Positions 3,205-45,300 of a stretch of DNA of 64,000 bases are shown piece after piece; within the stretch, counting starts at the first letter, position 1, and each line of letters starts with the position of its first letter. The stretch lies in assembly GCA_021735425.1 (NCBI GenBank), contig JAIPGZ010000001.1, positions 1 to 64,000 of the forward strand, given 5' to 3'. The translations under genes were made by a program, and so were the position numbers. Below the pieces are notes generated by a model, which saw nothing but the letters and a program-made list of their open reading frames with translations, was not told the origin of the DNA and ran no database searches. The DNA comes from Candidatus Altimarinota bacterium. GTDB lineage: Bacteria > Patescibacteriota > Gracilibacteria > JAHISY01.

Positions 3205-3720
3205 TCAGCTCAAAACTTTCTCCAGCTTTCTGAGTTTTCCAGCCAGCGATAGATCGATTAGTTCATCTCCGAGGTAGATTTTCACACCACCAAGCAGTTT
3301 TGGATTTTCGGTGACATTGGTGGTGACATCTTTACCTGTAAATTTTCGTAATGCGGCGGTCAGTTCGCTGAGTTGCTTTTCTGCTAGCGGAGTGGCGCTT
3401 TCAATTTCCGCCGTCGCGACACCGGCAGCTTCACTTAGCACGGTGCGAAAACTCTCGGCGATATTTCCGATTTCACGAACTTTTCTATTATTCACCACAA
3501 TCTTTAAAAGATTTATCAGTAGGGGATTGTCGGCAAAAGCTTTTTCGATTAATTCCGCTTTGGTGTTTTCAGAAGTTTGTGGATCTCCGAGGAATTCCGC
3601 TACTCTCTCTTCACTCAAAACTTCCGCAGCAATATCCAAATTTTCTGCCAATTCTTCCAAATTTTTCTCACCAGCAGCCAGCAGAAGTCCACGCGCGTAT
3701 CTCAAAGATATTTTAGTCAA
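3205..3720 (-). CDS. atpH: F1 ATP synthase delta subunit (OSCP)
   Basis: This peripheral stalk protein joins the b dimer to the top of the F1 head. The 171 residues match the family. The all-helical N-terminal domain (LRYARGLLLAAGEKNLEELAENL) and the conserved C-terminal KLLGGVKIYLGDELIDLSLAGKLRKL (split here as two motifs, near residues 142-165) are visible. It lies downstream of atpF with a 78-nt spacer made of AGTTAG-type words and upstream of the long gap before atpA. Confidence 0.93.
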   Translation of the reverse strand: MTKISLRYARGLLLAAGEKNLEELAENLDIAAEVLSEERVAEFLGDPQTSENTKAELIEKAFADNPLLINLLKIVVNNRKVREIGNIAESFRTVLSEAAGVATAEIESATPLAEKQLSELTAALRKFTGKDVTTNVTENPKLLGGVKIYLGDELIDLSLAGKLRKLEKVLS

Positions 3721-42771: not shown

Positions 42772-42836
42772 GTTTGTTTTGATTTTTGAAAAATTTTAAA
42801 ATTTTCAGCAAGAAATTTAATTTAACCCCACCTAAA

Positions 42837-43412
42837 ATGAACCCCTTTCGCAAACTCCGAAACCCCAAGGGTTTCACCCTCGTCGAGCTGATAATCGTGA
42901 TCATGATCATCGGCATCCTCGCGGCGACATTACTGCCGAAAGTGATGGGTGCACCCGCCTCAGCACGCGATGCCGGGAGAATTTCGCAACTCCGGCAAAT
43001 TGCGATTGCGCTGGAAGCTTATTACGCTGACAACAATCAATATCCATCGGTTGCGGGTTGTTTAGATCCTGCCATGACTTCTACTACCGCTGTCACCGTG
43101 GCTGGCGCTGTTTTAGTAAACGAATATATGGATTTGATGCCGGGTGATCCTCAACCGAATGCGGTATTGGGGGCGACATGTACAGCGGCGAATGCGGGAC
43201 GATTCTATTACAAACCTCTTACAAGAAGGGGGATTACGAACAACGCCTTTATGCTGGGTGCTAGGATGGAAAATACAAAGAAGGCAAATGCGGATTGGAG
43301 TACTGCTCTTGCTACTACTACGATTGAGGCACTAGCGCCTCTGACACGCGTTGTTCCAGCTACTATTGTAGGTGGTGATGCCGAAGCGGCTTATGTTGTT
43401 TACGGAGGCTAG
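42837..43412 (+). CDS. Type IV pilin-like protein, copy A
   Basis: The 191-residue prepilin has the class III leader FRKLRNPKG cut before FTLVELIIVIMIIGIL. The pilin Glu5 is present and a long N-terminal helix continues as LRQIAIALEAYYADNNQYP, followed by a globular part with two Cys. I chose ATG 42837 over 42786 because it places the leader correctly. It is the first of a tandem pair; no pilB, pilC or prepilin peptidase is in the window. Confidence 0.9.
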   Translation: MNPFRKLRNPKGFTLVELIIVIMIIGILAATLLPKVMGAPASARDAGRISQLRQIAIALEAYYADNNQYPSVAGCLDPAMTSTTAVTVAGAVLVNEYMDLMPGDPQPNAVLGATCTAANAGRFYYKPLTRRGITNNAFMLGARMENTKKANADWSTALATTTIEALAPLTRVVPATIVGGDAEAAYVVYGG

Positions 43413-43436: not shown

Positions 43437-43985
43437 ATGCATTTCCCTAAACTCAGAAACCCCAAGGGTTTCACCTTGGTCGAGCTGATTATCGTGATCA
43501 TGATTATCGGCATCCTGTCGGCGACGATTCTACCGAAAATCATGGGTGCGCCGGCGCGGGCGCGCGACACCGGTCGGATCAAAGATCTAGACAGTCTTGC
43601 GATTGCGCTTAATCAGTACTATGACGACAACAAACAGTTCCCGACCGCTGCGGATGAATGTCTAGCGCCTGCTAGTGTCACGGGTGCGAAGTTAGTGAGT
43701 GGGGGTTATCTCTTGGCGAGCAACTTCCCGATGGATCCGACTGCGACTGCCGGTGTCGGTGCTTGCTCTGGTAGTTATATGTATTCCTCTTTACTTAAGA
43801 ATGGAATTCCAGATAACGCTTTCTTGCTCGGGACTGACGTAGAAAGTGATGGAGAAGCGAATGCAAATGCAGCCTGTGCAGTGAAAGCGACCTACGGTAC
43901 GGTTGAGCTTGTCGATGCTTGTATTGTAGCGACAGCGATTGGTACGGCCGAGAATGCTGTTTTTCTCAAGTTGGGTGGGTTGTAG
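43437..43985 (+). CDS. Type IV pilin-like protein, copy B
   Basis: This 182-residue prepilin lies 24 nt behind copy A. The first 75 residues are nearly the same as copy A (RNPKGFTLVELIIVIMIIG, then TGRIKDLDSLAIALNQYYDD), while the globular domain has diverged. It is clearly a local duplication, giving major and minor pilins or two adhesin heads. A terminator follows at 44015-44039. Confidence 0.9.
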   Translation: MHFPKLRNPKGFTLVELIIVIMIIGILSATILPKIMGAPARARDTGRIKDLDSLAIALNQYYDDNKQFPTAADECLAPASVTGAKLVSGGYLLASNFPMDPTATAGVGACSGSYMYSSLLKNGIPDNAFLLGTDVESDGEANANAACAVKATYGTVELVDACIVATAIGTAENAVFLKLGGL

Positions 43986-44250: not shown

Positions 44251-44343
44251 TCACAACACATCGTCGTGGCTCTTCATCATCTCGTTCGCTACGAAGAAGG
44301 AGATTAGCAGAGCTCCGAAATTTAGAAGGACTTGAGTTATCAT
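44251..44343 (-). CDS. Micro-gene: 30-aa single-helix membrane peptide
   Basis: ATG 44343 follows the previous stop by 1 nt. The 30 residues are MITQVLLNFGALLISFFVAN, a hydrophobic helix, then a charged end (EMMKSHDDVL). It is the last gene of four tightly packed minus-strand micro-genes. Its size and layout recall type I toxins or small regulatory membrane peptides, but I cannot name a family. Confidence 0.5.
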   Translation of the reverse strand: MITQVLLNFGALLISFFVANEMMKSHDDVL

Positions 44344-44344
44344 T

Positions 44345-44518
44345 TTAAGCAAAAAGAAAACCGTTACCGCGACCGTCGACAAAAATCTTTTCTCCAGGTC
44401 GGGGAGCGCAGAGCACTCGACCGTCGCTTGCTTCAATTCTGGTGTGCCCTTTCCGTTGATAAACGACTTTGTGCTCGTCAATCCACTTGCGCGGCGCGAT
44501 TTTAAAAATACGCAGCAT
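44345..44518 (-). CDS. Micro-gene: 57-aa basic protein of unknown family
   Basis: The ATG shares one base with the preceding stop (TAATG). The product is basic and beta-rich in appearance (RKWIDEHKVVYQRKGHTRIE, ending GRGNGFLFA), with one Cys. It fits between the zinc-ribbon gene and the 30-residue peptide gene with no spare bases, which is strong evidence that it is coding. No family is recognised. Confidence 0.6.
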   Translation of the reverse strand: MLRIFKIAPRKWIDEHKVVYQRKGHTRIEASDGRVLCAPRPGEKIFVDGRGNGFLFA

Positions 44519-44670
44519 TACTCAAAAAGCGGAGTTAATAATTCGATCAATCCTTTTTTGCGATGTTTGGCTTTCCACATTTCGCTTTCCTCATTCATAA
44601 TTTGACAATACGGGCAGCGCTCCTGTTTGGTTGAGATGGCTTTTCCGCATTCGAGGCAATTGACAATCAT
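44518..44670 (-). CDS. Micro-gene: 50-aa zinc-ribbon protein
   Basis: The 50 residues start MIVNCLECGKAISTKQERCP: two CxxC pairs (C5, C8 and C19, C22) in a classic zinc ribbon, then a basic helix (WKAKHRKKGLIELL). The ATG overlaps the stop of the HTH gene as ATGA, indicating translational coupling. It could bind nucleic acid or another protein; the target is unknown. Confidence 0.72.
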   Translation of the reverse strand: MIVNCLECGKAISTKQERCPYCQIMNEESEMWKAKHRKKGLIELLTPLFE

Positions 44671-44849
44671 AGGGTTTGGAGCATTTGACGATCGAGAAAT
44701 TTCTCGATGTCGCTCTCCCGAATCCGGTAAACCCGTCCGATTTTCGCACCCCGCAGCTTCCCGTCTTTGATGTAATTCAGAATGGTGAAAGGATGCAATT
44801 GTAGTTTTTCACCAGCCTGTTCGGGAGTGAGGATGCGATCTGCTTGCAT
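44667..44849 (-). CDS. Excisionase/MerR-like HTH protein, 60 aa
   Basis: This is a single winged-helix DNA-binding domain of the excisionase (HTH_17) type: LTPEQAGEKLQLHPFTILNY, then DGKLRGAKIGRVYRIRESDI and EKFL. Such proteins are Xis-like or act as small repressors. It heads an operon of four overlapping micro-genes. Its TAAAAT box (44871-44876) ends 21 nt upstream, and AT-rich direct repeats lie further upstream, candidates for its binding sites. No integrase or att site is seen. Confidence 0.85.
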   Translation of the reverse strand: MQADRILTPEQAGEKLQLHPFTILNYIKDGKLRGAKIGRVYRIRESDIEKFLDRQMLQTL

Positions 44850-44939: not shown

Positions 44940-45300
44940 AGTATAGGTAGTTGGGACAGAATTATCAACATTTTAGTCAAGTTAATTAAAAAAGACCCAA
45001 TTTAATCAAATCTAGTTAAATTTAATCAAAGTTTGGGCAGTCCTCGGTGAGTTGAAGCGATGAAATCAAATTTTGTTCAACCACAAGATATTGTAGCACA
45101 AAATGGCTTGAAGAAAACAGTTTTATGATTTTTAAACAAAATTAGAGCAAAGCAAAAAAGCTTGAGGTTGTTTGAAAAAAGTTAAAAAAGCTTAAAGCGA
45201 ATTGGAAAGACTTAAAAACAAGAAGTTTAGGTCAAAGCAACTTTAGGTGAGTTTTTTTATGTTAAAACAATATTTCACAAAAACATGGAACATTGAGCAT
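44940..45300. repeat. AT-rich gene-free region with direct repeats
   Basis: About 500 nt (44877-45357) without a convincing gene, of low GC. AATTTAATCAAA occurs at 44999-45010 and 45019-45030, exactly 20 bp apart. AAAAAAGCTT occurs at 45154-45163 and 45184-45193, exactly 30 bp apart. Related words (AGTTAATTAAA, AGTTAAATTTAA) fill the region. It separates the micro-gene operon from divergent aroC. Confidence 0.55.

What the first reader, a model, noticed from the sequence alone, without database searches (positions are those of the whole stretch)
44251..44849. Four overlapping micro-genes form an undescribed-looking operon
An excisionase-like HTH (60 aa), a zinc ribbon (50 aa), a 57-aa basic protein and a 30-aa membrane peptide follow one another on the minus strand with ATGA, TAATG and 1-nt junctions. 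Three are below usual gene-calling size. Such tight packing is unlikely by chance, and the set (DNA binder, Zn ribbon, membrane peptide) recalls a tiny regulatory or toxin-like module. Family recognition covers only the HTH and the zinc ribbon.
Basis: partly seen in the sequence, partly recalled or inferred. Interest (0 to 1): 0.7.

Follow-up and report, generated by a model that had tools for sequence, protein, structure and literature searches.

The report
Self-regulating four-gene micro-operon with DNA array
Four tiny genes in a little-known group of bacteria are real and conserved, and the first one sits behind a ladder of 10-letter DNA repeats found essentially nowhere else in its genome, which suggests a small DNA-coating protein that controls its own operon, two of whose members are of unknown kind.

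Summary
The four small ORFs are there as described. All four are kept in order in four other genomes of the family (2 genera), each under protein-level purifying selection, so they are genes. The tight junctions are not the evidence: chains of 4 such ORFs also occur in shuffled sequence, and only the HTH/zinc-ribbon ATGA overlap recurs. In 353 genomes of the class, 100 of 104 array hits in HTH-bearing genomes lie 9-516 bp upstream of this HTH gene; in a single-contig 1-Mb genome it is the only array. The HTH is a BldC/Xis/RdfS-like single-domain winged helix, a kind known to line up head to tail on DNA, one molecule per ~9-10 bp. Best reading: a filament-forming autoregulator with its cognate operator. 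A zinc-ribbon partner follows it in 10 families but not in the f9 and f155 loci scanned; the 57-aa and 30-aa genes are additions of the window's family without known relatives. Toxin or excisionase roles are not supported. Binding, direction of regulation and the roles of the two last proteins are untested.

The parts
44667..44849 (-). gene 1: 60-aa single-domain winged HTH (HTH_17 / excisionase-BldC type), probable autoregulator
   Evidence: Pfam HTH_17 49.5 bits against cut-off 27; TIGR01764; BldC best in PDB by sequence and fold; pN/pS 0.17
44518..44670 (-). gene 2: 50-aa zinc ribbon (CxxC...CxxC), class-wide partner of gene 1
   Evidence: weak zinc-ribbon matches below curated cut-offs; four invariant Cys in 16 sequences; next to the HTH gene in 10 families; pN/pS 0.37
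44345..44518 (-). gene 3: 57-aa basic, predicted all-beta protein of unknown family
   Evidence: found only in family f1, 5 genomes; no family match; AF2 pLDDT 79, all beta, no fold match; pN/pS 0.23
44251..44343 (-). gene 4: 30-aa peptide with one hydrophobic segment and a polar C-terminal tail
   Evidence: conserved in order in 5 genomes; pN/pS 0.32; hydropathy
44971..45030 (-). 10-bp-phased direct-repeat array (TTTGATTAAA TTTAACTAGA TTTGATTAAA TTGGGTCTTT TTTAATTAAC TTGACTAAAA), probable operator of gene 1
   Evidence: unique to this site in the genome at the stringency used; class-wide beside the HTH gene
44940..44968 (-). sigma-70-like promoter TTGATA-17-TATACT abutting the array
   Evidence: pattern scan (3 found against 2.6 expected by chance, so weak alone); the hexamers are largely kept while the spacer varies in five genomes
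45072..45101 (-). single-copy conserved block of unknown role, imperfect inverted repeat around an extended -10-like core
   Evidence: 0-1 mismatch in five genomes, one copy in each

Best explanation
This is a small autoregulated operon. The 60-aa winged-HTH protein (gene 1) probably binds the 10-bp-phased TTTAATNAAN repeats upstream of its own gene, one protomer per DNA turn, lined up head to tail as BldC, phage Xis and RdfS do, and so sets, most likely represses, transcription of the operon. SHOWN: four coding genes; class-wide co-occurrence of the HTH gene and the array; the array's near-uniqueness in each genome; its 10-bp phase and prevailing orientation; the BldC/Xis-like fold prediction; the zinc-ribbon partner in 10 families. 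INFERRED: that the HTH protein binds this array, that it forms a filament, and that it represses. GUESSED: the zinc ribbon (and, in this family, the 57-aa beta protein and the 30-aa peptide) are co-expressed partners that modulate the HTH protein or carry the operon's output, with the 30-aa peptide acting at the membrane. My confidence is for the autoregulator reading; for the guessed roles it is about 0.25.
For: Class-wide search: 100 of 104 array hits in HTH-bearing genomes lie 9-516 bp upstream of the HTH match in 49 genomes of 11 families, 93 of 100 on its strand; three of the four exceptions sit at a contig end (G584). The backwards-pattern control gave none in nine genomes at 3 mismatches. 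All 26 upstream regions tested hold a phased array, 23 with 0/100 and 3 with 1/100 shuffles reaching the score; the score peaks at 10-bp spacing and strong units recur at 10, 20, 30 and 40 bp. In G558 (one contig, 998 kb) all seven high-scoring windows are this one site. Fold and sequence matches: BldC, Xis, RdfS. Literature: BldC binds 9-bp AT-rich direct repeats head to tail (PMC5859096); RdfS, also an HTH_17 protein, covers ~10 bp per protomer and represses its own promoter (PMC11963761). Coding constraint.
Against: No binding or expression data exist. The DNA-contacting residues of BldC named in PMC5859096 (Lys26, Arg30, His46) appear not to be kept in the window protein by hand alignment, so specificity would differ. 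BldC repeats are 9 bp, here 10. 44 of the 93 HTH genomes lack a <=2-mismatch three-unit hit; 12 of these were among the 26 tested and do show a weaker phased array, the other 32 were not examined. The zinc ribbon was not found next to the HTH gene in the f9 and f155 loci scanned, so it cannot be essential to the core function.
Confidence: 0.72

Rival explanations
1. The array is a centromere-like or chromosome-anchoring site: the HTH protein builds a nucleoprotein filament there for partition or membrane tethering, and autoregulation is secondary, as in plasmid partition loci.
For: One array per genome beside the gene of a small HTH protein; the DNA-binding domain of the pSK1 Par partition protein bound to centromere DNA is among the fold matches, weakly (8csh, E=0.17); in family f1 a small membrane peptide is part of the operon.
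Against: No GC-skew turning point at the locus in the contigs of G000, G004, G029 and G060, and dnaA lies on other contigs; G558's skew is monotonic and so says nothing. No NTPase or coiled coil seen in the module; the membrane peptide is absent elsewhere in the class.
Confidence: 0.1
2. A toxin-antitoxin-like module in which the HTH protein is the autoregulating antitoxin and a downstream small protein (30-aa membrane peptide or zinc ribbon) is the toxin.
For: A small DNA-binding autoregulator at the head of an operon of tiny genes is a usual antitoxin layout; gene 4 is a short hydrophobic peptide.
Against: No family match to any toxin or antitoxin or defence model (apart from generic HTH and a weak mad1 hit); stable synteny over two genera rather than patchy mobility; genes 3 and 4 are absent in most of the class while the HTH gene and array persist, and in f9 and f155 the zinc ribbon is absent next to it too.
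Confidence: 0.06
3. The HTH protein is an excisionase (recombination directionality factor) of a mobile element, as its NCBIfam name says.
For: TIGR01764 'excise' match and PHROG excisionase matches; the repeats could be Xis-type arm sites.
Against: No integrase among the neighbouring genes examined; the locus sits in conserved chromosomal contexts (aroC upstream and pilins downstream in the window's family, uvrA and a secreted-protein operon in several others); not found in viral contigs or phages for gene 3.
Confidence: 0.04
4. The module is a dedicated regulator of the adjacent type IV pilin genes.
For: Pilin genes lie convergent and adjacent in all five genomes of the family.
Against: No second array near the pilins or elsewhere in the window; in other families the neighbours are different genes; convergent neighbours share no promoter.
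Confidence: 0.08

Closest known systems
BldC of Streptomyces (PDB 6AMA, 6AMK; PMC5859096)
   Same: MerR-like winged HTH with no dimerisation or effector domain; AT-rich direct-repeat target; best sequence and fold match
   Different: BldC is a pleiotropic regulator with many targets and 9-bp repeats; here one array per genome, upstream of its own gene, with 10-bp units and different residues at the named contact positions
RdfS excisionase of ICEMlSym-R7A and mycobacteriophage Pukovnik Xis (PDB 8DGL, 4J2N; PMC11963761)
   Same: HTH_17-type fold; RdfS is a head-to-tail oligomer with ~10 bp per protomer that represses its own promoter
   Different: No integrase or attachment site seen here; chromosomal with conserved synteny; RdfS has an extra N-terminal helix and no consensus motif was found for it
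Zn_ribbon_3 / DZR zinc ribbons (Pfam)
   Same: CxxC-x(n)-CxxC zinc ribbon
   Different: Below all curated cut-offs; a 50-65-aa protein with its own C-terminal part, tied by gene order to the HTH gene
pSK1 Par partition protein (PDB 8CSH)
   Same: Small HTH DNA-binding domain bound to centromere DNA
   Different: Weak fold match (E=0.17); no skew turning point at the locus in the contigs checked; no partition function shown

Membership tests
BldC-like / HTH_17 single-domain winged-HTH regulators | HTH_17 winged-HTH fold | tested here: met
   Pfam 49.5 bits against cut-off 27; AF2 model pLDDT 92.5 and Foldseek
BldC-like / HTH_17 single-domain winged-HTH regulators | No dimerisation or effector domain | tested here: met
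   The window's 60-aa protein is almost entirely the domain; in some other families it carries a tail ending in -DHYII/-HYILE-like motifs
BldC-like / HTH_17 single-domain winged-HTH regulators | Cooperative head-to-tail binding to direct repeats | not testable with these tools
   Phased directional repeats beside the gene are consistent with it, but binding was not measured
BldC-like / HTH_17 single-domain winged-HTH regulators | BldC's own DNA-contact residues Lys26, Arg30, His46 | tested here: not met
   Hand alignment extended puts Phe, Asn and Val there; these set BldC's own specificity, not the fold family. So: works like BldC, not filed as BldC
Excisionase / recombination directionality factor | Linked integrase and attachment sites on a mobile element | tested here: not met
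   No integrase among the adjacent genes examined; conserved host synteny. Attachment sites were not sought
Toxin-antitoxin module | Toxin gene paired with the antitoxin gene across the family | tested here: not met
   57-aa gene found only in family f1 and the 30-aa gene read only there; zinc ribbon absent next to the gene in f9 and f155 loci scanned
Toxin-antitoxin module | Growth inhibition by the toxin alone | not testable with these tools
   Needs an experiment
Plasmid-type partition locus (pSK1 Par-like) | Repeat array beside the gene of its binding protein | tested here: met
   (that the protein binds it is inferred)
Plasmid-type partition locus (pSK1 Par-like) | Segregation role, on chromosomes usually near the origin | tested here: inconclusive
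   No skew turning point near the locus in G000, G004, G029, G060; dnaA elsewhere; G558 uninformative

The most novel reading that the evidence does not exclude
A lineage-specific nucleoprotein locus: the HTH protein polymerises only at its own 10-bp ladder, and the zinc ribbon plus, in this family, a new beta-fold protein and a membrane peptide assemble on it, forming a four-protein DNA-to-membrane switch or tether of a kind not described before.
Probability: 0.12. Interest if true: 0.8.

Novelty: new variant of a known kind. Interest (0 to 1): 0.55.

Why it matters
Little is experimentally known about gene regulation in these streamlined, mostly uncultured bacteria. Here a regulator and its likely operator can be paired from sequence alone across a class, which gives an immediately testable protein-DNA pair and a natural series (arrays of varied length) for studying filament-forming winged-HTH proteins. 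It also shows that genes below the usual calling size, two of them of unknown family, are under selection and easily missed by annotation.

Tried and rejected
Tight packing as evidence: not strong. PHROG 905 match of the 30-aa peptide: 1 of 5 orthologues only, rejected. Structured RNA upstream: no Rfam match above a gathering score and a covariation term that does not favour the structure. Replication origin: no skew turning point, dnaA elsewhere. Fold of the 57-aa protein: no significant match. A 25-aa ORF over the conserved block 45072-45101: open in all five genomes on reading by eye, but its conserved part is kept at third codon positions too and the region has no indels, so a DNA element is likelier. 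In-frame upstream extension of the 30-aa ORF (76 aa from a TTG): not conserved across the G004 insertion. Motif scan for an HTH near 13 array hits outside the strong-HTH genomes: none found. Repeat nature of the two G004 inserts: one copy each in a 159-kb contig, so 'repeat element' is unproven.

Full report
WHERE IT IS. The window is part of a 76-kb contig of a ~1-Mb genome in 38 contigs. Contig records of its relatives are titled Candidatus Gracilibacteria, Candidatus Peribacteraceae or just bacterium. Genomes are named below by handle and families by the tool's anonymous numbers.

OBSERVATION. The four minus-strand ORFs are exactly as described. All four recur in the same order in G002, G003, G004 (same genus) and G005 (other genus of the family); a further relative, G001, shows neither gene 1 nor gene 3. 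Each ORF is under protein-level constraint: pN/pS 0.17, 0.37, 0.23, 0.32, against 0.79-2.0 in the two shifted frames, with codon position 3 the most variable in each. The junctions themselves are not conserved, except the HTH/zinc-ribbon ATGA in four of five genomes. In G004, 93 and 88 nt lie between genes 2/3 and 3/4 without breaking an ORF. Chains of four such ORFs also occur in shuffled sequence (2 of 40 strands), so the original argument from packing is weak and conservation carries the case.

CORE AND ADDITIONS. The HTH gene has strong orthologues (E about 1e-24 or better) in 93 of 353 class genomes; weaker hits (E 1e-13 to 1e-17) were left out. A 50-65-aa zinc-ribbon ORF with four invariant cysteines follows it in families f1, f4, f11, f16, f18, f20, f21, f23, f151 and f152. 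It was not found next to the gene in f9 (0 of 9 scanned), f154 (0 of 1) or f155 (0 of 5); the motif scan requires ATG and so misses the GTG-started copies of G005 and G020, which searches show. The 57-aa gene was found only in the window's family, and no relative appeared in the libraries or collections searched. The 30-aa gene was read only in the same five loci; it was not searched for on its own.

THE ARRAY. Alignment of the 300 bp upstream of the HTH gene showed strong conservation, almost without indels, and upstream regions of other families show tandem TTTAATAAA-like units. A four-unit score with 10-bp spacing exceeded the shuffle mean in all 26 loci; 23 were never reached in 100 dinucleotide shuffles and 3 were reached once. 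The unit was chosen after seeing some of these loci and the loci are related (nine families), so these counts are not independent tests; the class-wide search below is the stronger one. The mean score peaks at 10-bp spacing (26.5 against 19.0-20.6 at spacings 6-9 and 11-14; 24.1 at 15), and strong units recur at 10, 20, 30 and 40 bp. A three-unit pattern with up to 3 mismatches placed 30 hits in nine whole genomes, all beside the HTH gene, with no control hit. Over the whole class at up to 2 mismatches there were 119 hits: 104 in HTH-bearing genomes, 100 of them 9-516 bp upstream of the HTH match (49 genomes, 11 families), 93 on its strand. Of the four exceptions, three are at the very start of a contig in G584, whose HTH match begins 229 bp into another contig; one, in G588, is a lone hit elsewhere. 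Of the 15 hits in genomes without a strong HTH hit, those of G538, G542 and G592 (8 hits) lie within about 20-400 bp of a contig end, and seven are scattered singles in families without the HTH gene, where the backwards control also gives scattered hits. Forty-four HTH genomes have no 2-mismatch hit; 12 of them were among the 26 and have weaker arrays, 32 were not examined. In the single-contig genome G558 all high scores are one site. Outside the class only a few matches appeared and no such HTH was seen beside those checked.

MECHANISM. The HTH protein's best sequence and fold matches are BldC, Pukovnik Xis and RdfS (Foldseek E-values are modest, 2e-3 to 5e-2, with TM-scores near 0.7, for so small a domain). 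BldC binds 9-bp AT-rich direct repeats head to tail, and RdfS covers about 10 bp per protomer and represses its own promoter. A directional 10-bp ladder next to the gene and essentially nowhere else therefore most simply reads as the operator of an autoregulator. In the window the array (44971-45030) abuts a largely conserved TTGATA-17-TATACT promoter; in some families it reaches to about 10 bp from the HTH match, which favours repression. This is inference; no binding was measured. What the partners do is a guess: the zinc ribbon may modulate the HTH protein, and the 30-aa peptide, with one hydrophobic segment, may act at the membrane.

ALTERNATIVES. Excisionase: no integrase among the adjacent genes examined, conserved host synteny. 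Toxin-antitoxin: the putative toxin genes do not travel with the HTH gene. Pilin regulator: no second array near the pilins. Partition site: not excluded; the contigs checked show no skew turning point near the locus and dnaA lies elsewhere, but G558's skew is one-directional throughout and cannot test it.

NOVELTY. Fold and likely binding mode are known; a sequence-visible, class-wide, near-unique cognate array and the partner genes were not found described in the paper searches made (open-licence full text only). I rate it a new variant of a known kind.

Noticed in passing
window 45072-45101 (-): A 30-bp block (TTGTGCTACAATATCTTGnnnTTGAACAAA) between aroC and the array is conserved with 0-1 mismatch in five genomes and has one copy per genome; an imperfect inverted repeat with an extended -10-like core. 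Purpose unknown.
   Followed up: partly
L247-L296 (G558:C1, 998 kb): Cumulative GC skew falls steadily over the whole single-contig sequence with no turning point; one-directional replication or an assembly matter.
   Followed up: no
L043, L044, L046, L047, L048, L050, L053, L055, L057: In several other families the convergent neighbour is an operon of several predicted secreted proteins; the one set tested (L055) has no Pfam family except a TSP3 repeat.
   Followed up: partly
HTH genes in L008, L010, L011, L012, L014, L190, L192, L197: HTH proteins of f18, f21, f155 and part of f4 carry a variable tail ending in a -DHYII/-HYILE-like motif, perhaps a partner-binding motif.
   Followed up: no
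L039 (G004), between genes 2/3 and 3/4: Two hairpin-forming stretches of about 90 nt separate the genes without breaking them; one copy each in the 159-kb contig.
   Followed up: partly
window 42786-43412 and 43437-43985 (+): Two tandem type IV pilin-like genes with nearly identical N-terminal parts and diverged C-terminal parts.
   Followed up: no
L233 about 3225-3255; upstream regions of G079, G085, G097: A conserved stretch TACTTAAAAACAAGGAGGATATTG upstream of the HTH gene in family f18 looks like a strong ribosome-binding site without an evident gene behind it.
   Followed up: no
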